Shown one piece after another: positions 28,822 to 63,685 of a DNA stretch of 64,000 nt (its first letter is position 1; each line of letters starts with the position of its first letter). Both the position numbers and the translations under genes were made by a program. Source of the DNA: Diphasiastrum complanatum (lineage: Eukaryota; Streptophyta; Lycopodiopsida; Lycopodiales; Lycopodiaceae). The notes beneath the pieces are model-generated. The model saw only the letters and a program-made list of their open reading frames with translations. It was not told the DNA's origin and ran no database searches. The stretch lies in NCBI GenBank assembly GCA_029204225.1, contig CM055111.1:25734761-25798760 (forward strand), given 5' to 3'.

Positions 28822-29570
28822 TTGGCAGATCAGCCTCATCGTCATGGAGAGTTGCCAATCCTATCTTCTACCCTGCTTCACCAATCCTTCTAGCACACGG
28901 CTCATGATTTATCAAGGATGGGGTTAATGCATGATTATGGACAGTAGTAGCTCTTATATATAATCCTTCACAGTTTTTACTCATTTCCATAATCAAGCTT
29001 CATGTAACTGATTGTCAACTACTCTTAACCTACAGGGCATCCTGTACTAAGCTGAGTACAGAACAAGAAAATGTACATCAACGCATCGGTACAAATCTCC
29101 TATACATTCAATAGAAAAGTTAAAATTTGATCAAATTTCTATGACTGCACAAGAGTTGATTTAAAACCACAAAGCCTTGATGTGGTCAAGCTCTCAATTA
29201 CGAAGTTCCATATGTTAAAGAACTGATTAACAATGTTCAGTTAAATCTCATATCTACCCTCTATGTGAGATGCTTGCTCGCTAATTGAAGTGAGGTTTCT
29301 TTCGTTGTCAGGCACAAAATTTTTGCCTAGCAAGCAATGCTGTCAGGCAAAAAAAATTTCCCTGGCAGTTCTCCATGGCCATGAGGCAGAGCACATCAAT
29401 AGGTATGAGGCTTCTACCGCAACATGGAAACTTGGACTCTTGAAATGCATGACCAACTAGAGTGAATCAGTCGCCCACTTGCAGTTTGGAGGGGTGTTTA
29501 GTTAAGCATTCATTAATTGTATGTTGTTGGGTTAGTGGCGGACTATTTAACATTTTGTTGTAGGCATTAC
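28822..29570. other. Non-coding stretch with one more hairpin repeat
   Basis: No gene is supported. 29309-29376 repeats the cluster motif (GTCAGGCACAAAATTTTTGCC ... TGTCAGGCAAAAAAAATTT). The stretch ends where the LTR of F1 starts (29571). Confidence 0.5.
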
Positions 29571-30298
29571 TGTGAAGATTATTAAAATATTATCTTCCTA
29601 TCTCGAGTTTGGGTTCATGTCCATGATAATTTCTACTAGATTTCATGTTGTACATATAAGGAGTGTGAATTGAGCACATATCCTTCAGTGTAGCTCGGAT
29701 TTGAGTTATATAGGTTCAATTGTAATGACATGAAGATGTTTTGATAGCATGCAAAGTCTTACTGTATGCATGCAAGCCACATGCAATCAGTGCATGCAAC
29801 ATGCAAAGTAGTTTTTGTGATCTACACATGTCTAGGCAAGTTTATGACTTGACATGCAGTACATGCACCATACATGCATGCAATTACACATGTGGATATC
29901 TGGTACGTGAATTAGTTTAGTTAAGTGGACTTTCCATGCAACTCCACTGTAGGAATTCGAGTCTCTCTCATATAGGGAAAGCTGGGCATGTTTTGCCATA
30001 TTGTGAATATTGAGATTTTGGTGTTTTGGACTCATTCTCTCTCTACCCAAGTTTTCTATGTATGATTTTCTCTCTCTACCCGAGAGAAGCCTTTTTTTCC
30101 CATACTGAACACTTAGAATTATTTCTAACATTCTTTTCTCATAGTGAAGAGTTAGAGTTTTTCATCAGATGTATGCCATTGTGCTCTTGCCTTAGATTTT
30201 TCAAGCATACTGTTCTTTATCAATCTTGTGCAATGAAAACACCTCAGTAAGATCCTGTAGGGTGTGTGGTGAAGTTCACACGTGCTAAAAACTTCACA
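29571..30298 (+). repeat. 5' LTR of copia element F1
   Basis: TGTGAAGATTA ... ACTTCACA, followed at once by the primer-binding site TGGTATCAGAGC (30299-30310). It is nearly the same length and sequence as the LTR at 46066-46788. The region 29740-29900 is rich in GCATGCA words. Confidence 0.9.
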
Positions 30299-31062
30299 TG
30301 GTATCAGAGCTTCATGCTTTGAAGAGGTGAGGTGTATACATCAGATCATCAGTGTTTTTGCTTGCAGGAACTCGAATTTTGGAGAAGTATTCAAACTCGC
30401 TGAGAAACAATCAATCTGTGAATCATAAGTGGATCAAATCAAGGCTAATCTGATCCAGCGGAGCTCTGTACGGACAGAGAGCTCATAGGTGTGAAATCAA
30501 CCCTCATTAATGAGTGCTACTTCTCAAGAAATGATCCAAATTTGATGCTCTATAGCTTGTTGGATAGGTATTGGAGAGTAGAATGTGTTGCTCTTGTTTC
30601 TAAATCAATTTGATTTGTTTTTAGAAGAGTTTTAGGCAATCAGAGTTTGAGAGGGTACTCAACTCGTGGGATATGCCAAAGTGAGCACACATCTGTCTTT
30701 TTCACCAATTTCATCAATTTTCATTGTAGGATTGGATAGAAATGAGTGTTCTGAGGTCTTAGACTTTTCATTTCACACATATTACTATGTTTGAGTTGAA
30801 AGTAAGTTCCTAGAGATTTTTTTAGTACATTGAAGCTCATGGGAGAGATAGACTTCTTGCTTGCATGTGCTTCTTCTTTTGTGACTAAAGCAAAATCCAA
30901 ATTCAAGATAGATTGATTTTCTGTATTGAGAGTTTGTTCTCACATTTGTTGCTAGATTTCATAGGGTAGATCAACATCTGTGTTAGATCCTAGATTGAGA
31001 TAGCAAGCAACATCCTTTCAACTCCATTTTTTTTATCATTACTAGAATTTCTCACCAAGAAG

Positions 31063-32007
31063 ATGTCTTCATCTGGTTCACATTTCTTAGAGCACAGTGA
31101 GAGATTAACATCTTCCAATTATGCAATGTGGAAGATCAGAATGGAATCATTGTTAATTCTACAGGATGTAATGGATATTGTGAGTGGAGCGGAAGAAGAA
31201 CCTGCTGCACCTAATGAAGGTGCAGTATTCCACAAAAGAACCAGAATTGTCCTTCATTTTATAAAAATGAATGTTACCAATGAAGTGTTAAGAGAGGTCA
31301 GTACATGCACCACTGCCAAGGAAGCTTGGATACTCTAAAAACAATCTATGAAATCAAAAATACTTCGACTACTTACACTTAGAAACCAAATATTTCTAAG
31401 TTATCAGAGAGTAGATGAGAGTGCTTCATCATATGTCATGAGAGTTAAGGATCTTCATCAAGAGTTAGCTGGTATTAGTGATGCTCTTAAGAACACTGAA
31501 CTTGTTCAAGTAGTCCTAAATGGACTTAGAGATGAGTATGACAATATTGTGCAGACTTATGCTATCAGAGAGGATCTTCCATTCTTGGAGACACTGCAAG
31601 GTGTTCTCATTGCTGAAGGAAGCAGGCAAGAGAACAAGATGCTGAGGATCAACAAAATTTCATTGAAAGATGGTGGAGATGACAAAGCACTCTTCATCAG
31701 ACACAAGTCAAGAGGCAAGGGCAAAGGACAACAACACTTCAAGAAGGACAAAGCCAAAGAAGGTGGTGAGGATCAGTCCTCACAAGGTGCAACATCCAGT
31801 GGCAAGAAGAAGTTGTCAAAGATCAAGTGTTTTTTCTGTGGAAAGAACGGACATTATGCATCCAATTGTTTCAAGAAGAAGAACCAATCTAAGCAAGCTA
31901 ACCTTACTAATGAGGATGAGTGTGAGGGTGTAGAGAGTGAAAGAGAGGATTCAATAATGATGTCTACTTTTTCATCTTTTCCTTTTAAGAATGAAGAAGT
32001 CTGGTAA
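31063..32007 (+). pseudogene. Copia gag of element F1
   Basis: After a leader of about 750 nt, ATG at 31063 gives MSSSGSHFLEHSERLTSSNY, a typical gag N-terminus. One base is lost after TAKEAW (near 31327); the remaining gag is open from 31348 to 32007, with the dimer/helix region, a Lys-rich tail and the zinc knuckle CFFCGKNGHYASNC (near 31830-31871). A TAA at 32005 replaces the first residue after the Trp of the WYIDSGA-type protease site. Gag forms the particle; with its single frameshift this copy is close to coding. Confidence 0.9.
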
Positions 32008-45738: not shown

Positions 45739-46065
45739 ATAAAAATTTCCAAGTTAAGTAAATGTTATAAAGTTATACTTCCTCTCAACTGTATGAAATT
45801 TATATATGATGAATGCCTCTTGATTGTAATTGGAAATTGGCCAATGAAAGTTTTCCACTAAATCTATAATTATACTAGCGTTTTTCTTAAATAGCAATAA
45901 TAATAAATATAGGAGTTTAAGGCACATGAATAGTTGTGGTACTTTTTATATTATACATGTTTTAAGCTTGACCCATTCAATCAAGCTTATGCTTAATATC
46001 TCACATATTTTATGACATATTTCCAAAATAGCTAGAATCATACTAATGTGTTGTTATGCCTTAAA

Positions 46066-46788
46066 TGTGAAGATTAGTAAAATATTATCTTCCTATCTCG
46101 AGTTTGGGGTCATGTCCATGATAATTTCCACTAGATTTCATGTTGTACATATAAGGAGTGTGAATTGAGCACATATCCTTCTAGTGTAGCTCGGATTTGA
46201 GTTATATAGGTTCAATTGTAATGACATGCAGATGTTTTGATAGCATGCAAAGTCTTACTGTATGCATGCAAGCCACATGCAATCAGTGCATGCAACATGC
46301 AAAGTAGTTTCTGTGATCTACACATGTCTAGGCAATTTTTTGAGTTGACATGCAGTACATGCACCATACATGCATGCAGTTACACATGCGGATCTCTGGT
46401 AGGTGAATTAGTTCAGTTAAGTGGACTTTCCATGCAACTCCACTATAGGAATTCGAGTCTCTCTTATGTAGGGAAAGCTGGGCATGTTTTGCCATATTGT
46501 GAATATTGAGATTTTGGTGTTTTGGACTCATTCTGTATCTACCCGAGTTTTCTATGTATCATTTTCTCTCTCTACCCGAGAGCAGCCTTTTTTTCCCATA
46601 CTGAACACTTAGAATTATTTCTAACATTCTTTTCTCATAGTGAAGAGTTAGATTTTTTCATCAGATGTATGCCATTGTGCTCTTGCCTTAGATTTTTCAA
46701 GCATACTATTCTTTGATCAATCTTGACAACACCTCAGTAAGATCCTATAAGGTGTGTGGTGAAGTTCACACGTGCTAAAAACTTCACA
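46066..46788 (+). repeat. 5' LTR of copia element F2
   Basis: TGTGAAGATTAG ... ACTTCACA followed by TGGTATCAGAGC at 46789-46800. Very similar to the F1 LTR. The sequences flanking the two LTRs differ, so these are separate insertions and not the two ends of one element. Confidence 0.92.
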
Positions 46789-47563
46789 TGGTATCAGAGC
46801 TTCATGCTTTGAAGAGGTGAGGGTGTATACATCAGATCATCGGTGTTTTATCTTGTAGGAACTCGGATTTGGAGAAGTATTCAAACTCGTTGAGAAACAG
46901 GCAATATGTGGATCATAAGTGGATCAAATCAAGGCTGATCTGATCCAACAGAGCTCCGTATGGATAGAGAGCTCACACACGTGAAATCAGCCCTCATTAA
47001 TGAGTGCTACTTCTCAAGGAATGATCCAAATTTGATGTTCTATAGCTTGTTGGATAGGTATTGGAGAGTAGAATGTGTTGCTCTTGTTTCTATATCAATT
47101 TGATTTGTTTTTGGAAGATTTTTAGGCAATCAGAGAGATTGAGAGGGTACTCAACTCGTGGGATATGCCAAAGTGAGCACACATCTATCTTTTTCACCAA
47201 TTTCATCAATTTTCATTGTCAATCAAGTAGGATTGCATAGAAGTGAGTGTTATGAGGTCTTAGACTTTCATTTCACACATATTACTGTGTTTGAGCTGAA
47301 AGTAAGTTCCTAGAGAGTTTTTCAGTACACTGAAACTCATGGGAGAGATAGACTTCTTGCTTGCATGTGCTTCTTCTTTTGTGACTGAAGCAAGATCCAA
47401 ATTCAAGATAGATTGATTTTCTGTATTGAGAATTTGTTCTCACATCTGTTGCTAGATTTCATAGGGTGGATCAACATTTGTGTTAGACCTAGATTGAGAT
47501 AGCAAGCAACATCCTTTCAACTCCATTTTTTTTTTATCATTACTAGAATGTCTCGCCAAGAAG

Positions 47564-48229
47564 ATGTCTTCATCTGGTTCACATTTCTTAGAGCACAGTG
47601 AGAGATTAACATCTTCCAATTATGCAATGTGGAAGATCGGAATGGAATCATTGTTGATTCTACAAGATGTAATGGATATTGTGAGTAGAACTGAAGAAGG
47701 ACCTGCTGCACCTAATGAAGCTGCAACATTCCACAAAAGAACCAGAATTGCCCTTCATTTTATAAAAATGAATGTTACCAATGAAGTGTTAAGAGAGATC
47801 AGTACATGCACCACTACCAAGGAAGCTTGGGATACTCTAAAAACAATCTATGAATCAAAAATACTTTTAGATTGCTTACACTTAGAAACCAAATATTTCT
47901 AAGTTATCAGAGAGTAGATGAGAGTGCTTCATCATATGTCATGAGAGTTAAGGATCTTCATCAAGAGTTAGCTGGTATTAGTGATGCTCTTAAGAACACT
48001 GAACTTATTTAAGTAGTCCTAAATGGACCTAGAGATGAGTATGACAATATTGTGCAAACTTATGCTGTCAGAGAGGATCTTCCATCCTTGGAGACACTGC
48101 AAGGTGTTTTCATTGTTGAAGAAAGCAGGCAAGAGGACAAGATGCTGAGGATCAACTGACTTTCATTGAAAGATGGTGGAGATGATAAAGCACTCTTCAT
48201 CAGAGACAAGTCAAGAGGCAAGGGCAAAG
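47564..48229 (+). pseudogene. Copia gag of element F2, truncated
   Basis: ATG at 47564 gives MSSSGSHFLEHSERLTSSNY, almost identical to F1 gag. The frame is broken near 47868 and has stops near 48008 and 48159. It still reads DKALFIRDKSRGKGK before ending abruptly at 48229, where a different LTR-like sequence starts (TGTGAGAAATTG, 48230-48327). The zinc knuckle and all pol domains are missing. Confidence 0.9.
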
Positions 48230-48327: not shown

Positions 48328-49561
48328 TGTAAAGTAAATAAAAATGCTCAAACCCTAATAGAACTTGACAAAATCATATATTTTGGTACAATTATGGCAA
48401 GTGGTTTTGAGTGTTATTCTGGTTGTCGACAGACATTAAAAAGTAACCAATATTACTTATATTTGGGATGGGTAGTGTTAATAAATTTAGAACAACAATC
48501 TGGCCTCTATCGAATTGGATGAAGCGCGTTCTACAAATGAGATGTTATCAGAGTAGTACAGCGGTACTATACTCTGGCTGATTAAGGTGTCAACAGAGAA
48601 TCGAAAATTGTTCGATGTATTCACGACTGTGCAGACAATTAATTAATCTCGTTCACGAACTATTTGTTTCTAGACAGAAGTCCTCAACAACTAAAGTCCA
48701 ACTTAATGGTTAAAGAACACAAAGAGTTTTAGAATACGTTAGAAACTTATGTCAATGCCAATCAGGAAGACAGATCAGAGACTTAATTCTTCAGACAGGG
48801 ACTATCATCTCATATGTATACATACAGCTTTATTCAATGATCGTGCTAGACTGTACCAAAGATAGTCGTTATTCAAGTGCCGCAAAGAAAGTATTTGCGA
48901 CAGACGAATAAGATAGTTTAAAGACAGTATTTTAGGGCATGCTTTACGGAAACTCAGCAAACGACTGTAATGCACTAGAGCGTTTGTCTGATCAGAGAGA
49001 AATTCATGAAATGTGTTAGAGATTGTTAGTAGACTCCAAAGCACTCACACTTAGCAGTGCGGAGAACAGAGATAAGAGAGAATAACTCATAGAACTCTAT
49101 TCACTTCTTCAATCTCTTACATAAGCATAAACTCTTCTCTCTCGATGATCGAGACTGAAGTGTGAGATCAATATATGTTCTACGGGGGGAACAAACACAT
49201 CTCTTAAAACAATAGGTGCATCACTCCTGCGAAAGGATCTAGTTAACGATTAGACTGAAAATACGTTCACCTATACCATAGGAGGTATACTTAATTATGA
49301 GTTAAAGTTACTCTAGTTTATCATGTCTTTTCCTATCTAGTCGTTTCGTATGGACAACCTAGTAAAGGTTGCCCAAGACAATGTCTTTTCCTTTAAAAGG
49401 TCTTGCCCTTAATTACAAGGCAAGTGCTTAGGAGATATATTCCCAAAAAATGACTTAGGCCTCTTCATGATTTATACTTATCCAGCTCATATCTTCATTT
49501 TCGAGTATATCATGCCATATTTATGTTGATATTTAATATTTAACATTTTCATGGCATCACA
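48328..49561 (-). repeat. 3' LTR of minus-strand gypsy element H
   Basis: On the minus strand it starts TGTGATGCCATGAAAATG right after the purine tract GAGGAAGGGGATA (49562-49575) and ends at about ...TTTACTTTACA. It aligns in inverted orientation with 57112-58107 plus 63681-63870. The plus-orientation copy carries a gypsy primer-binding site at its end, which confirms that this is an LTR. Confidence 0.8.
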
Positions 49562-57111: not shown

Positions 57112-58107
57112 TGTGATGCCATGGAAATGTTAAATATTAAATATCAACATAAATATGGCATGATATACTCAAAAATAAAGATATGAGCTGGATAAGTATA
57201 AATCATGAAGAGGCCTAAGTCATTTTTCGGGAATATATCTCCTAAGTACTTGCCTTGTAATTAAGGACAAGACCTTTTAAAGAAAAAGACATTGTCTTGG
57301 ACAACCTTTACTAGGTTGTCCATACGAAACAACTAGATAGGAAAAGACATGATAAACTAAAGTAACTTTAACTCATAGTTAAGTATACCTCCTATGGTAT
57401 AGGTGAACGTATTTTCAGTCTAATCGTTAACTAGACCCTTTCGCGGGAGCGACGCACCTGTTGTTTTAAGAGGTGTATTTGTTCCCCTCGTAGAACATAT
57501 ATTGATCTCACACATCAGTCTCGATCATTGAGAGAGAAGATTTTATGCTTATGTAAGAGATTGAAGAAGTGAATGAGTTCTATGAGTTATTCTCTCTTAT
57601 CTCTGTTCTCCGCACTGTTGAGTGTGAGTGATCTGGAGTCTGCTAACAATCTCTAATGCATTACATGAATTTCTCTCTGATCAGACAGACGCTCTAGTGC
57701 ATTACAGTCGTTTGTTGAGTTTCCGTAAAGCATGCTCTAAAGAACTGTCTTTAAACTATCTTATTCGTCTGTCGCGAATACTTTCTTTTCGGCACTCGAA
57801 TAACAACTATCTTTGGTACAGTCTAGCACGATCATTGAATAAAGCTATATGTATACATACGAGATGATAGTCCCTGTATGAAGAATTAAGTCTCTGATCT
57901 GTCTTCCTGATTGGAATTGACATAAGTTTCTAACGTATTCTAAAACTCTTCGTGTTCTTTAACCATTAAATTGGACTTTAGTTGTTGAGGACTTCTGTCT
58001 AGAAACAAATAGTTCGCGAATGCGAATAATTAATTGTCTGCACAATCATGAATACATCGAACAATTCTCGATTCTCTGTTAACATCTTAATCAGCCAGAG
58101 TGTAGTA
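57112..58107 (+). repeat. 5' LTR of plus-strand gypsy element I, first part
   Basis: It starts TGTGATGCCATGG and aligns inverted with 48328-49561. It is interrupted at TAGTA by element G and resumes at 63686. Confidence 0.85.
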
Positions 58108-58754
58108 TGTGAAAAATACAGATCCTAAGTGGATCTAAACTCCAAGATCATTGGCTTGAATGCTTGCACTCCAAACTACATAAGCTAGGAATTGGCAACA
58201 CATTCTATGCTACCTAGAATGCAAAGAACTTGATCAAAAAGCATTTATCACAAATGGAAACTTCCATAAACATCAAGTGCGGCCCAAAATAGCATTATAC
58301 AGTCCATAATACATCAGCCTACCACTTTTGGAAAGCACCTAAGATCATACACACAAAGCTTGAACTCAGTCACTACACAATGCCAACAATGGAAGGAGAA
58401 CCCAATAGAAAAATCTCTCATTAAGCAAATGAATACAATGGATCTGCTCCAACCTGTTTCTCCACGGCCTACCTGCTATATATAGCTGAGAGAGATGACT
58501 CTCTCTCCTCTCTCTAGACCCTCCTTACCTAAAATATGCCCTATATAGGTAAAATTGGCATATATGTCCAAAATACATGAAAATGGACTCATTTCGAAGG
58601 TCTTGAAGTTTGACACTTCTTCATACTGAAAAAATACACTTACTAAAAATATCTAGACCTGTTTCACACGTGTGAAAAGTCAGATCCTAAACTATGTGCC
58701 ATTTTTAGCAATTTTGGCCTAAAACTAGACAAGGAAATGTTGACAATTTTCACA
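58108..58754 (-). repeat. 3' LTR of element G
   Basis: TGTGAAAATTGTC ... TTTTTCACA on the minus strand. TATA box TATATATA lies near 58477-58485, and the palindrome TTTCACACGTGTGAAA near 58662-58677. Confidence 0.95.
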
Positions 58755-58767
58755 CTCCCTCTTCAAC
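58755..58767 (-). other. Polypurine tract of element G
   Basis: GTTGAAGAGGGAG on the minus strand, between the final stop codon of the long frame and the 3' LTR. Confidence 0.9.
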
Positions 58768-59307
58768 TTAACTTGCTAGTTTTACAACACTACTTTGTTC
58801 CAACTTAAGAATGATCTCCATCATCAGAATAGATCTCTTCTCAAGGATCCTAATATGTACAAAATAGGACACAACATAATTGATATAGATAATAGTGTCC
58901 ATATAGGATGCTTCACTATTTCTTACATCAATTTTACATAGAATCATAAAAATGGTACATGTAAAAGAACATAGAATCTCAATTAATGAATTCCTCCATG
59001 TATCCATCTCTGGTTTCTCTGTAAAATAGCAGCAAACAAGTTGTAAATGAAAGTGATCAACAAGTGTTTGCATGCCTCCTCCACATTTCACTATACATAT
59101 AGTGAATGCAACATGTATCTCCATGAATGAACTTCCATCACCACCTTGCCTTTGTAGATCTTCAATCCATGAAAGCCTTTGAGTGAATGAATGCCAAAAA
59201 GATGTGTTCCCTACTCCATTTGAATGACCAAAACCTGAACTTGAAATACTTGAAGTACCTCCACAAGATTTGCACACAACGCTTGATCCTACAATGTCAA
59301 CAAGTTG
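58768..59307 (-). CDS. Downstream part of the element G frame after in-frame UGA
   Basis: 179 codons in the same frame as the upstream 850-codon ORF, separated from it by a single TGA at 59308-59310. It opens QLVDIVGSSVVCKSCGGTSS and is Ser/Gly/Cys-rich at first (CGGTSSISSSGFGHSNGVGN), then hydrophobic and Ile/Tyr-rich (about 58800-58960), ending VVKLAS and TAA immediately before the polypurine tract. I recognise no family; it does not resemble the end of copia RNase H. It may be expressed by readthrough or may be the intact end of a once continuous protein. Confidence 0.5.
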   Translation of the reverse strand, partial: QLVDIVGSSVVCKSCGGTSSISSSGFGHSNGVGNTSFWHSFTQRLSWIEDLQRQGGDGSSFMEIHVAFTICIVKCGGGMQTLVDHFHLQLVCCYFTEKPEMDTWRNSLIEILCSFTCTIFMILCKIDVRNSEASYMDTIIYINYVVSYFVHIRILEKRSILMMEIILKLEQSSVVKLAS

Positions 59308-61860
59308 TCAATTTGCCAACACTAGAATACTAGATCTTGAACTTTGTTCAAAAGAAAACATATTGACCACTTCAATACCTTTCAAGATCTGAATGAATTC
59401 ATGTACTTGATCATACAAACCAGCAATGATAACTATTCCATCTCCAAGATCCAAAGGATGCAAAACTATGGAACTAGTTTTATTGAAATTTGACAATTTC
59501 AACACATTGACATAACAATGTTCATACATGAGATTAGGCAAGTGAGGTAGAGTAAGAAGACACTTCCTTGCAGCTCCAAAGACCTTACTTGAACCTTCAA
59601 GAACCTGTAAAAACAGATCCAAAATGCCTTGACCATTTGTCTCTTCTTTGATGCTTGTCACTAGCTTCGAATTGCCACTTGTCTCTTGGTGTTGATGAAG
59701 CAATCCAAGATCAACCTCTTGATCTTCCAATAAGACATCAAAGATCTTGCATATGTGAACATCTTCAGATCTGAAACTCTGAAGATACTCCCTCTCAAAC
59801 ACATGATTAAGATCCCACAAGATCTCATCAATGCTCAAATTTGACCCTTCACTATAGTTAGTGAAAACAATGCCACCATCATAAACCAAAAGATAGATTC
59901 CAACATTTCCATTTAACATGAAGTAGAGTAGGTGAAGATGAGTATCAAACCTAATCAAAACAGCCCTCTTGAGTTCATAACAAACCTCAATAAGCTCACC
60001 AATGATATCTCCCTTGCCTTGAAGAAGTTGCCACTTGAGTTGCTCCATGTAGTCTTCTTCAACCAACCTTTTGCCATCTTGACCATGAATGAACAATCCA
60101 CCACAATCATAGAATGCTTTGAGTTGATGAAGAGATGTTAGATCCATGCTTTGGATCTTCCCAAGAACCACTCTTCCATTGCCCTTTCCTTCACAAGACT
60201 CCCTCTTAATGCTAGCACCACAAAAGTTAGAAACCTCCCTCTTGATAGTTGCACCATAAGAAGTAGAAGACTCTTGAATATTAGAAGCCAAGAAAAGAAT
60301 CCTTAGTACCTTCAACATAAGAGTGATTGAAGTACTCTCTCTTTTCAAACATGAACTTCTACTCAATGATTTAGGTAATGAGTCATATGATAATGATTCT
60401 TCCTCACTATCGTTCATAAAAACATCATTCAAAGTACATCCTACTTTGAACACTTCACATACTTCTCTTCCTTTTGACTTGTGATCTCCCTCACCAAGTC
60501 TCATGATAGAAACCTTTGATCTACTCTTTTTATGAAGAAATGTGACACCACTTGTTGCACAAATGATTTTATCACAAAAAGATGTAAAAGAACCATTTCC
60601 TTCAAGCATGCTCAAAGCACCATCATCTTTTCCCACATGATTACATACATCAATATGAAAAGAATTAGAAGAACAACCATCTTCTTGCAAAGAATGACAC
60701 TTAGCATCTCCATCTTTTTCCATATGAACAAACAAGTCATTAGCAACAATCACTTCCAAAGAAGAATCTTCATCAACTCCATTGATGAAGTTAGCTCCTT
60801 CCTTACCTTTTCCATTTTTGCACTTGCCATCTAGCACCATTGAAGAACCACCAAGCCTTGGAAGTCCATGAGTAGAAGAGTACAAACATGATGCTAATTT
60901 AGCTCCACATGACTCCATATGACTAGTAGGTAACACTAGTGCATCTTCAAGATCCAATGGATCCAAAAAATTGACCATAGATTCACCAAAGCTTGCCAAG
61001 TTAGCACAACAATTATCATCTCCAAGAAGTACATTAGATCTCAACCTAGATCTAGCATTTTGTTTCTTATGGCATTCATTTGCAAAATGTCCTTTTATCC
61101 CACAATAAAAGCACTTGAACTTTGACTTATTGTTCTTAGTAGAAGAGGAAGAGGAAGAGTGATCATCATGATCAAAGTTACCACCTTTGGACCATTTCCC
61201 TTTGCCTTTACCTTTGCCCTTGAATTTGCCTTTTGTGAAGAAAGCCTCTTCACCTCCACCTTGCAAGGATGCACCATCAAGCTTTGATTGCAACCTATGT
61301 TCTTCAGCCAATAAGATTTCTTGCAAGTCAACCACACTTGGCAAGACTCTTTGAATGGCAAAACTTTGCACAAGGTTAGCATGTTCATTTAGCAAACCAT
61401 TCAACATAACTTGGACTATTTCACCATCTTTTATGTTCTCATCAATGCATGCTAAATCATCACTTAGGGACTTAACTCTCAAGATAAATGCATGAGCACT
61501 TTCACCCTCTCTTTGCCTACTAGAAAATATTTGTCTCCTTAGGGTCAATACCCTAGATGTGGACTTTGATTCAAAGAGCTTCTTTAAGGCATTCCATGCC
61601 TCACTTGCACTTTGACACTTTCCAACTTCCTTGAGAAGTTCATTTGTAACATTCATTTTAATGATATGAAGAGCCCTTTTGGCCTTCTTATCAAACCTTT
61701 GTTGCTCTTGAAGTGTGAGAGGTCTCTCTTCAATTTCTGCAACTATGTCCATGAGTTCATTCAACTCAAGTAAGGACTCCATCCTCACTTTCCAAGTAGA
61801 GTAGTTTGATGAACTCAACCTTTCACTAGACTCTAGCATGATCCCACCATTGGAAGCCAT
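59308..61860 (-). CDS. Gag fused to an unidentified 580-residue region (element G)
   Basis: ATG at 61860, 850 codons, no interruption. Residues 1-200 are copia gag (SNYSTWKVRMESLLELNELM, SEAWNALKKLFESKSTSRVL, LRVKSLSDDLACIDENIKDG). Then comes a Gly/Lys-rich basic stretch (about 210-226), a Ser run, and the zinc knuckle CFYCGIKGHFANEC at 250-263. From about 271 to 850 I recognise nothing: no DSGA protease site, no LWHKRLGH, no integrase DDE, no YVDD. This part is Ser-, Cys- and Asp-rich to about residue 500, then more globular (LHQLKAFYDCGGLFIHGQDG, LIRFDTHLHLLYFMLNGNVG, LHPLDLGDGIVIIAGLYDQV). Gag would let the RNA be packaged by related copia particles. The rest could be captured host sequence or a novel element protein. 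Confidence 0.85.
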   Translation of the reverse strand: MASNGGIMLESSERLSSSNYSTWKVRMESLLELNELMDIVAEIEERPLTLQEQQRFDKKAKRALHIIKMNVTNELLKEVGKCQSASEAWNALKKLFESKSTSRVLTLRRQIFSSRQREGESAHAFILRVKSLSDDLACIDENIKDGEIVQVMLNGLLNEHANLVQSFAIQRVLPSVVDLQEILLAEEHRLQSKLDGASLQGGGEEAFFTKGKFKGKGKGKGKWSKGGNFDHDDHSSSSSSTKNNKSKFKCFYCGIKGHFANECHKKQNARSRLRSNVLLGDDNCCANLASFGESMVNFLDPLDLEDALVLPTSHMESCGAKLASCLYSSTHGLPRLGGSSMVLDGKCKNGKGKEGANFINGVDEDSSLEVIVANDLFVHMEKDGDAKCHSLQEDGCSSNSFHIDVCNHVGKDDGALSMLEGNGSFTSFCDKIICATSGVTFLHKKSRSKVSIMRLGEGDHKSKGREVCEVFKVGCTLNDVFMNDSEEESLSYDSLPKSLSRSSCLKRESTSITLMLKVLRILFLASNIQESSTSYGATIKREVSNFCGASIKRESCEGKGNGRVVLGKIQSMDLTSLHQLKAFYDCGGLFIHGQDGKRLVEEDYMEQLKWQLLQGKGDIIGELIEVCYELKRAVLIRFDTHLHLLYFMLNGNVGIYLLVYDGGIVFTNYSEGSNLSIDEILWDLNHVFEREYLQSFRSEDVHICKIFDVLLEDQEVDLGLLHQHQETSGNSKLVTSIKEETNGQGILDLFLQVLEGSSKVFGAARKCLLTLPHLPNLMYEHCYVNVLKLSNFNKTSSIVLHPLDLGDGIVIIAGLYDQVHEFIQILKGIEVVNMFSFEQSSRSSILVLAN

Positions 61861-63021
61861 GATTCTAATGTTTCTTCAACTTTTAGGTTCTGTCCTAAAG
61901 CACTTAGCACTCACTTTTCTCTCAACAAATGATAGATAAAGATATCTATGAAGATTTAGGACCCTAAAACACTTCTATCTTGAACCTAGATGGTTTCCAA
62001 GCATAGAAAGGAAGATTGAAACACATGCAACACTTTGCACACACTAAGAATGGATTACAAAATCAAACCAACCTGAACACACTCTTTCTTAAGCTCTCAA
62101 ACTTTCCAGCAAGTGACCAAATCAAGTTATGGTGTGAAGAGTTACTTGCATTCTTAGAAAATACCCAAAACTAGGATGCCAAGATTACCTAGTAATGAAC
62201 AAACTTGATCAACATATGATCAACACACTAAGATATTGATTCAACCTGTAAAACCACATGTAAACCACACTTCTAAAAGTTTATAAACTCCAGCAAGTGA
62301 TAAATACAAGATTTAGAGGTGAATGAATGAGCACACTTAGTGAATCACAAGACTAGCTTCACTATCTTGTCAAATCTTGGTGTTTAGATGTAGATCTAAG
62401 ATCACTTCACATGAGAATGTTCCTCAACCTGTTAAGAACCTGAAAACACACTTGCATAATGGTTAACACCTTCCAGCAAATGCTCCAATCAAATTACATA
62501 AGGAGAATTACTTACATGCTCAACAAAGTACACCAAAATTTATGCCAAAATTGATGACAATCTTTACAATATGCTCTTCACAATGGAGCTTACAATATGT
62601 TCACCCAAAAAAAGGGGATCTTTCATCCAAATGGGAGCTTTGCTCAGCCTTTAGGAGAATTACAACTCACTCAAAAGAGCATTTGTCATCCACTTAAGGA
62701 GAAGTTTCATCCACTTAAGGAGAGTGTTCATCCAAGAATGGAGATTGTCAACAATAGGATTGAAAAGAACATTGTTAGTATTGAATATGCACAAGCCTCA
62801 CAATCACAAATGATTAGGTGTTATGATCTAATCCAAAATAGTTTCTTTTCAGCCTCTGATCTTCAATAGACCTGAAATATGCTTTTGATCCACAAGTTCA
62901 ACTCACAAAACAAAGGTTAGTAAGATTTGATCAACAAAGCAATGCAAAATCATGCTAGAACTTGATCAAACATCCAAATATCACCAAAAATGGAATACTT
63001 ACTGTAAATAGAAGCCAACCA
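61861..63021 (-). other. Long leader of element G with tandem repeats
   Basis: 1161 nt between the primer-binding site and gag. Three degenerate units of about 184 bp share the words AACCTG ... CCAGCAAGTG ... GTTACTTGCAT; the CCAGC words start at 62106, 62290 and 62473. A second array with period 21 bp (CATCCACTTAAGGAGA at 62687 and 62708, CATCCAAGAATGGAGA at 62729) lies nearer the primer-binding site. Confidence 0.75.
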
Positions 63022-63033
63022 GCTCTGATACCA
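63022..63033 (-). other. Primer-binding site of element G
   Basis: On the minus strand TGGTATCAGAGC abuts the 5' LTR. Confidence 0.95.
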
Positions 63034-63680
63034 TGTGAAAAATATAGATCCTAAGTGGATCTAAACTCCAAGATCATTGGCTTGAATGCTTGCACTCCAA
63101 ACTACATAAGCTAGGAATTGGCAACACATTCTATGCTACCTAGAATGCAAAGAACTTGATCAAAAAGCATTTATCACAAATGGAAACTTCCATAAACATC
63201 AAGTGCGGCCCAAAATAGCATTATACAGTCCATAATACATCAGCCTACCACTTTTGGAAAGCACCTAAGATCATACACACAAAGCTTGAACTCAATCACT
63301 ACACAATGCCAACAATGGAAGGAGAACCCAATAGAAAAATCTCTCATTAAGCAAATGAATACAATGGATCTGCTCCAACCTGTTTCTCCACGGCCTACCT
63401 GCTATATATAGCTGAGAGAGATGACTCTCTCTCCTCTCTCTAGACCCTCCTTACCTAAAATATGCCCTATATAGGTAAAATTGGCATATATGTCCAAAAT
63501 ACATGAAAATGGACTCATTTCGAAGGTCTTGAAGTTTGACACTTCTTCATACTGAAAAAATACACTTACTAAAAATATCTAGACCTGTTTCACACGTGTG
63601 AAAAGTCAGATCCTAAACTATGTGCCATTTTTAGCAATTTTGGCCTAAAACTAGACAAGGAAATGTTGACAATTTTCACA
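63034..63680 (-). repeat. 5' LTR of element G
   Basis: 647 bp. It matches the 3' LTR except about two substitutions (near its start and near 63295). TAGTA follows. Confidence 0.95.
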
Positions 63681-63685
63681 TAGTA

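What the first reader, a model, noticed from the sequence alone, without database searches (positions are those of the whole stretch)
58108..63680. Recently mobile copia-like element carrying gag plus an unidentified protein and no enzymes
Seen: intact LTRs (about 2 differences in 647 bp), TSD TAGTA, primer-binding site, polypurine tract, and a frame running from 61860 almost to the polypurine tract. Only gag with a zinc knuckle is recognisable; about 580 following residues plus 179 after a stop match no copia domain I know. Known: non-autonomous LTR elements can move in trans if they keep packaging and priming signals. Inference: this is a parasitic family that has replaced pol with another sequence, perhaps captured host coding DNA, and has kept it open. 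Retention of such a long frame in a young copy suggests coding function.
Basis: partly seen in the sequence, partly recalled or inferred. Interest (0 to 1): 0.88.

Follow-up and report, generated by a model that had tools for sequence, protein, structure and literature searches.

The report
Enzyme-less jumping gene, recently multiplied
A plant jumping gene that has no copying enzymes of its own, but carries a coat-protein gene fused to a long protein of unknown kind, has recently spread to many places in its genome with that unknown part kept readable, much as a known wheat element does.

Summary
On the minus strand lies a 5573-bp copia-type LTR element: LTRs with 2 differences in 647 bp, 5-bp target duplication, primer site, polypurine tract, and an empty copy of the target site in the window. 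It encodes Gag fused in frame to X, which matches no copia pol in any frame tested and no Pfam, NCBIfam or database protein found. The stop at codon 851 is private to this copy; in intact copies the frame runs 1030 codons. The family is a young burst: 75 of 75 scored X copies (the best-scoring) are 99-100% identical; 18 of 20 full copies have duplications; LTR pairs differ by 0-3 bases. In a sample chosen on gag alone, 105 of 147 keep the whole frame. Two gag alleles (dN/dS 0.12) sit on one X backbone. Five copies at four sites lack exactly one 126-bp GT-AG intron, so spliced RNA was probably reverse-transcribed. Best reading: a semi-autonomous copia element that makes Gag-X and borrows enzymes, a counterpart of wheat RLG_Quinta (Gag + DUF1). 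Host-gene capture is unsupported. X's function, selection on X, and the partner stay open: whole-genome searches mostly did not complete.

The parts
58103..58107 (.). target-site duplication TAGTA, left copy
58108..58754 (-). 3' LTR (647 bp, TGTGAAAA...TTTTCACA)
58755..58764 (-). polypurine tract GAAGAGGGAG
58768..58770 (-). TAA that ends the Gag-X frame in intact copies (codon 1031)
58771..59307 (-). X, C-terminal 179 codons (852-1030), downstream of this copy's private TGA; hydrophobic stretch at residues 959-977
59019..59144 (-). 126-bp in-frame GT-AG intron inside X, precisely absent from five other copies (window coordinates by arithmetic)
59308..59310 (-). copy-specific TGA (codon 851; TGG in the other copies examined)
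59311..61065 (-). X, residues 266-850: unidentified coding region in the place of pol
61066..61860 (-). gag (variant A): Retrotran_gag_2, zinc knuckle, residues 1-265
61861..63021 (-). 5' leader (about 1.16 kb), with two diverged copies (72%) of a 119-bp segment
63022..63033 (-). primer-binding site TGGTATCAGAGC
63034..63680 (-). 5' LTR
63681..63685 (.). target-site duplication TAGTA, right copy
48362..48871 (-). paralogous empty target site (94%), uninterrupted, single TAGTA

Best explanation
A semi-autonomous Ty1/copia-type retrotransposon. It makes its own Gag, encoded as one Gag-X frame with no stop or frameshift between the parts, and has no recognisable pol enzymes. Its RNA keeps a tRNA-Met-type primer site, polypurine tract and LTR ends and is reverse-transcribed and integrated by enzymes of another copia element, inside particles built at least partly from its own Gag or Gag-X. 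Template switching between co-packaged RNAs swaps gag alleles onto the same X backbone. X most probably acts as a C-terminal extension of Gag inside the particle (recruiting a partner's Pol, RNA or target; about 0.3 for this role); an optional in-frame intron would give a second isoform. SHOWN: anatomy, recent amplification, no detectable pol, mosaic gag, copies lacking precisely one intron-like segment, purifying selection between the two gag alleles. INFERRED: supply of enzymes in trans, co-packaging, splicing, any role of X.
For: Complete cis signals and empty site. No pol match of X in six frames (best E 2.4) while the same probes hit other copias of the window at E down to 1e-138. 75 of 75 scored X copies 99-100% identical, 61 of 75 with a frame of exactly 1035 or 1053 codons. 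20 of 20 fetched copies have two LTRs, 18 of 20 a 5-bp TSD, 18 LTR mismatches in all, 8 pairs identical. 105 of 147 scored gag-B copies keep gag+X whole. gag A/B: dS 1.05, dN 0.13, ratio 0.12. gag cassette differs (blocks of 73-86%) with nearly all else 98-100% identical, plus within-gag mosaics L012, L048, L049. Precise 126-bp GT-AG removal in 5 copies at 4 flanks and on both gag backgrounds. Precedents with the same logic: RLG_Quinta, RLG_Sabrina_SA, a TR-GAG seen to transpose.
Against: No autonomous partner was identified: none of the 147 scored gag-B copies shows a frame of usual gag-pol size (about 1300-1450 codons, recalled), though one unexplained 4330-codon frame exists. No diverged X was found, so selection on X is untested; among the recent copies the C-terminal part varies as if neutral (14 nonsynonymous, 3 synonymous, plus the stop at 851). 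No transcript or protein data. The only structure model of X is useless (pLDDT 36.6). The homology searches scored capped or word-sharing candidate lists (7992 and 5773).
Confidence: 0.68

Rival explanations
1. Deletion derivative with an accessory ORF: the ancestor was gag-pol plus an env-like or other additional ORF before the 3' LTR; loss of pol fused gag to that ORF. (This and the next two concern the origin or role of X and may hold together with the best explanation.)
For: The frame's TAA lies three bases before the polypurine tract, the usual place of sense additional ORFs; one hydrophobic stretch at 959-977, Kyte-Doolittle 2.07.
Against: No pol remnant detected; the one strongly hydrophobic segment lies in the part of X with weak periodicity; no such ancestor seen.
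Confidence: 0.3
2. Captured host coding DNA, as in maize Bs1: X is a chimera of transduced gene fragments.
For: Triplet periodicity and an intron-like segment within X are compatible with a former gene; Bs1 is a precedent.
Against: No homologue in a database of about 5.8 billion proteins at E <= 1 (residues 266-850) or E <= 10 (560-1030), none in Pfam or NCBIfam. The database covers this plant poorly: gag itself found only two relatives, at 27% identity.
Confidence: 0.18
3. X is passenger sequence: only the cis signals and gag matter, and X is open merely because all copies stem from recent sources.
For: Only young copies seen; neutral-looking variation in 852-1030; the private TGA, a 15-bp deletion (L034) and a replaced segment (L047) occur in inserted copies.
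Against: No stop in 585 codons where about 31-35 are expected, and gag-like base periodicity across X: X was coding until very recently.
Confidence: 0.2
4. Diverged or frame-shifted copia pol.
For: Position after gag.
Against: Six-frame comparison of X gave no match to two gag-pol proteins (best E 2.4) while the same probes detected pol of the window's other copias; no Pfam pol domain in X at E <= 10.
Confidence: 0.02

Closest known systems
RLG_Quinta of einkorn wheat (PMC11302176; abstract and section 5 read)
   Same: One ORF with Gag plus a domain of unknown function (DUF1), no RT or integrase; conserved PBS and LTR ends; proposed to give Gag and to be mobilised by RLG_Cereba.
   Different: Quinta is gypsy and centromeric with an identified partner; this is copia-type, with copies on all of the contigs C1-C24 and several small ones, X is 765 codons (relation to DUF1 not tested), partner unknown, and two gag alleles share one backbone.
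RLG_Sabrina_SA / RLG_WHAM, semi-autonomous wheat elements (PMC9744471; passages read)
   Same: Very abundant elements with Gag but no RT/INT; Sabrina variants carry unknown coding segments; cooperative complex with an autonomous family.
   Different: Gypsy; Sabrina_SA has Gag-protease rather than Gag-X.
TR-GAG elements, e.g. Arabidopsis AT5TE33540 (PMC8704663; passages read)
   Same: LTR element with a single GAG ORF and no pol; the named copia member transposed in ddm1.
   Different: TR-GAGs are defined by GAG alone; here 765 further codons follow a gag of 265 residues.
Bs1 of maize (PMC7264820 parts 1-2 of 3 and PMC13317346 passages read)
   Same: Non-autonomous LTR element with non-pol coding sequence.
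   Different: Bs1's segments match named host genes; X matches none found, and this family is in high copy.
EVD/ATCOPIA93 spliced shGAG RNA (PMC8892269; passages read)
   Same: A copia RNA with an optional intron.
   Different: EVD's splicing yields a short GAG-only RNA; here the intron lies near the end of X, its removal keeps the frame, and intron-less forms are found as genomic copies.

Membership tests
LTR retrotransposon, copia-type | LTR pair with TG..CA ends, TSD, PBS, PPT | tested here: met
LTR retrotransposon, copia-type | copia-type gag | tested here: met
   Retrotran_gag_2 E 8e-23; mostly 41-54% identical over gag to other copias of the window
LTR retrotransposon, copia-type | protease-integrase-RT-RNase H in copia order | tested here: not met
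   no pol found in any frame: not an autonomous copia element
Semi-autonomous Gag-bearing element (Quinta/Sabrina type) | intact gag, RT and INT absent, recently multiplied | tested here: met
Semi-autonomous Gag-bearing element (Quinta/Sabrina type) | autonomous partner with the same PBS, LTR termini and activity period | tested here: inconclusive
   PBS is shared with other copias of the window, whose sequence before the PBS differs; genome search for a partner mostly unanswered (one search shows none)
Semi-autonomous Gag-bearing element (Quinta/Sabrina type) | belongs to the gypsy families that define those names | tested here: not met
   copia-type gag
TR-GAG | GAG as the sole coding content | tested here: not met
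   765 further codons in frame
LARD / TRIM | no coding capacity | tested here: not met
   1030-codon frame with gag domains; definition recalled
Bs1-like gene transduction | internal segment homologous to host genes | tested here: inconclusive
   none found, but the host proteome was not available as such
Env-like additional ORF | ORF between pol and 3' LTR coding a transmembrane protein | tested here: inconclusive
   one hydrophobic segment 959-977; no pol upstream

The most novel reading that the evidence does not exclude
A copia 'satellite' retrotransposon whose Gag has acquired a large new C-terminal protein, X, made in two spliced isoforms, that lets it take over the particles and enzymes of another copia family; it swaps gag alleles by template switching, so that X and the cis signals are the stable core and gag the exchangeable part.
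Probability: 0.25. Interest if true: 0.75.

Novelty: new variant of a known kind. Interest (0 to 1): 0.5.

Why it matters
Gag-plus-unknown elements without enzymes have been described in wheat gypsy families, but what the unknown part does is open. Here the same plan turns up in copia, in many near-identical copies, with a kept frame, an exchangeable gag and genomic copies that look like reverse-transcribed spliced RNA. That gives natural variants from which one can ask which parts such an element needs, and whether the added protein helps it exploit its partner.

Tried and rejected
Copia pol in another frame or highly diverged: rejected. TGA as a readthrough signal: considered because TGA-C is a leaky context (recalled); rejected because the other copies examined have TGG there. 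Host-gene homologue by protein search and families: nothing; PDB by sequence: nothing; viral contigs: nothing. Single-sequence fold of residues 561-850: unusable, so no fold search was made. Selection on X: not testable, since only near-identical copies were reached. In residues 266-850 the copies show 20 synonymous and 3 nonsynonymous single changes, but they were picked for identical X protein, so this is not evidence of selection; the C-terminal part, outside that query, looks neutral. A gag-C fossil beside copy L006 (68-69% identical to gag A and B over residues 1-88, 65-68% over 88-169) breaks off after residue 169; no X was found in the 7.5 kb beyond, and a distant gag, 23% identical, and pol pieces lie there. 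A first frame check misread minus-strand loci; redone. Rows dropped: L018 (duplicate of L017), L002 (same copy as L032), and L017, L034, L046, L047 (indels): 44 used of 48. TARE1 of tomato (PMC3701649, abstract and outline) was looked at and not used.

Full report
WHAT IS THERE. The element lies on the minus strand at 58108-63680. Its LTRs are 647 bp each with 2 differences. The insertion carries the 5-bp duplication TAGTA, and a paralogous stretch of the same window (48871-48362, minus) shows the empty site: the flanks, joined with one TAGTA, align at 477 of 510 positions without a break at the insertion point. The primer site TGGTATCAGAGC follows the 5' LTR; the window holds seven such sites (up to 1 mismatch) against 0.30 expected. 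The polypurine tract GAAGAGGGAG abuts the 3' LTR.

THE FRAME. An 850-codon ORF starts at 61860. Residues 1-265 are gag: Retrotran_gag_2 (E 8e-23), DUF4219 and a zinc knuckle, the latter two slightly under their curated cut-offs. Residues 266-850, here called X, have no stop in 585 codons, where second-order Markov simulations give 31 on average with X's own composition (smallest 13 of 2000) or 35 with that of the whole interior (smallest 18 of 2000). Base periodicity favours gag's frame in every 100-codon window tested from 266 on, by very little around 866-965. After a TGA the same frame continues for 179 codons to a TAA three bases from the polypurine tract.

X IS NOT RECOGNISABLE AS POL AND MATCHES NOTHING FOUND. 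Compared by tblastn, which reads all six frames of X, two gag-pol proteins (P0002 from Hibiscus trionum, P0003 unnamed) gave nothing better than E 2.4, while against the window they matched other copias down to 1e-138. Pfam at E <= 10 gave one chance-level hit (0.43), NCBIfam none, PDB sequences none. Two searches of a database of about 5.8 billion proteins gave nothing for residues 266-850 (E <= 1; 7992 candidates scored) or 560-1030 of another copy (E <= 10; 5773 candidates). The control, gag 1-265, found only the two gag-pol proteins at 27% identity, so the database is thin for this plant and the absence of relatives is weak evidence. IMG/VR gave nothing.

THE FAMILY. The window's assembly has 1.745 Gb in 5176 contigs. 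It is unnamed; its size and two dozen large contigs recall the clubmoss Diphasiastrum complanatum, which is recollection only and was not tested. A protein search with X gave 14896 first-look candidates, of which only the best 75 were scored: all 75 are 99-100% identical without a stop in residues 266-850, and 61 of 75 have a frame of exactly 1035 or 1053 codons. The window copy, 855, is the shortest; its TGA is TGG in the other copies examined and is therefore private. Of 20 copies fetched in full (window copy included), 20 have two LTRs, 18 a 5-bp TSD (not L043 and L046), LTR pairs differ by 0-3 bases (L046 by 1 and 2 gap positions), 18 mismatches in all, and 8 pairs are identical. Among 50 flanks 48 strings are distinct: L002 and L032 are the same copy, L026 and L038 share a flank, and L017 and L018, counted as distinct, differ by one base in the stretch compared, which leaves 47 different flanks. 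At a rate of 1.3e-8 per site and year (recalled; the passage seen shows only the end of that number), 0.14% means roughly 50,000 years; the rate is not calibrated for this plant, and these copies were picked for identical X, so the figure is biased young.

A SAMPLE NOT CHOSEN ON X. A search with gag B scored 147 copies (of 120655 candidates; again the best-scoring); 105 of 147 have the complete 1053-codon Gag-X frame, 42 do not (counted by eye from the table). None has a frame of usual gag-pol size; one of 4330 codons is unexplained. The copies stem from recent sources, so this shows that the sources were intact, not that X is under selection now. In 44 of 48 copies, variation at codons 852-1030 is 14 nonsynonymous (one of them private to the reference copy L003) and 3 synonymous, with one stop at 851, close to the neutral expectation of 72:24:4.

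EXCHANGEABLE GAG. Two gag variants, 208 of 259 residues identical, sit on the same backbone: LTR, leader and X are 98-100% identical between the 20 copies in 200-column blocks, apart from a variant LTR segment (L046) and a replaced segment of X (L047), while most gag blocks fall to 73-86% (11 of 20 copies carry B, two of them, L048 and L049, reverting to A at the 3' end of gag). L012 is B at the start and A at the end of gag. Between A and B dS is 1.05 and dN 0.13, ratio 0.12: both are products of long purifying selection and were brought together by recombination, most simply template switching in co-packaged RNAs.

COPIES THAT LACK AN INTRON. L017, L018, L046 and two further loci (L057, L058) lack the same 126 bp of X. 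The alignment permits cutting at CAAG|GTGGTG...TTTGCTGCTATTTTACAG|AGAAACC, a GT-AG intron with a pyrimidine-rich 3' end; only 10 of 2172 windows of that length in X begin with GT and end with AG. The length is a multiple of three, so the frame is kept (1053 to 1011, 1035 to 993). All four gag-B rows of 1011 codons are of this kind. L017 and L018 have nearly the same flank (a duplication), so there are four insertion sites, on both gag backgrounds; L046 has no TSD. An inherited deletion in one source, spread further by recombination, is possible, but its exact splice-site ends favour reverse transcription of a spliced RNA. Spliced copia RNA is known from EVD, with a different outcome (PMC8892269, passages).

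HOW IT MOST LIKELY WORKS. Transcription from the LTR gives an RNA that codes Gag-X. Gag, or Gag-X, builds particles; reverse transcriptase and integrase come from another copia family that uses the same primer tRNA. This follows RLG_Quinta, which encodes Gag and a DUF1 and is thought to be moved by RLG_Cereba (PMC11302176, abstract and section 5), and the semi-autonomous wheat families (PMC9744471, passages). That a copia element with Gag alone can move was reported in Arabidopsis (PMC8704663, passages). The trans supply, the packaging and every function of X are inference here.

MEMBERSHIP. It is a copia-type LTR element by gag and cis signals, not an autonomous one. It works like Quinta but is not a member of that gypsy family. 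It is not a TR-GAG in the strict sense, nor a LARD. Bs1-like capture and an env-like origin are inconclusive. I saw no description of a copia element with Gag fused to a long unknown protein in the listings of nine searches of the paper library, which holds open-licence papers only.

LIMITS. 

Noticed in passing
L033, 3' flank; G000:C13:25401529 and C13:25406438: The 3' LTR of one copy is followed directly by another leader (99.5%), and two gag rows lie 4909 bp apart: a tandem array sharing an LTR.
   Followed up: partly
G000:C7:33112121-33112897 (minus): A gag-B copy lies in an open frame of 4330 codons, far longer than any other of the 147; unexplained.
   Followed up: no
L006 3' flank and L056:286-531: The copy in L006 is inserted into a third gag lineage (about 65-69% identical to A and B) that breaks off after residue 169.
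   Followed up: partly
L046: A copy whose two LTRs share a foreign segment around positions 300-400 (LTR about 93% to the usual one) and which lacks the intron: recombination in the LTR as well as in gag.
   Followed up: partly
L047, 4810-4912: 143 bp of X are replaced by 103 bp of other sequence.
   Followed up: no
window 29556-31726 and 46049-48229: Two copies, 94% identical, of another copia element (primer site and gag included); the sequence before its primer site differs from the finding's.
   Followed up: no
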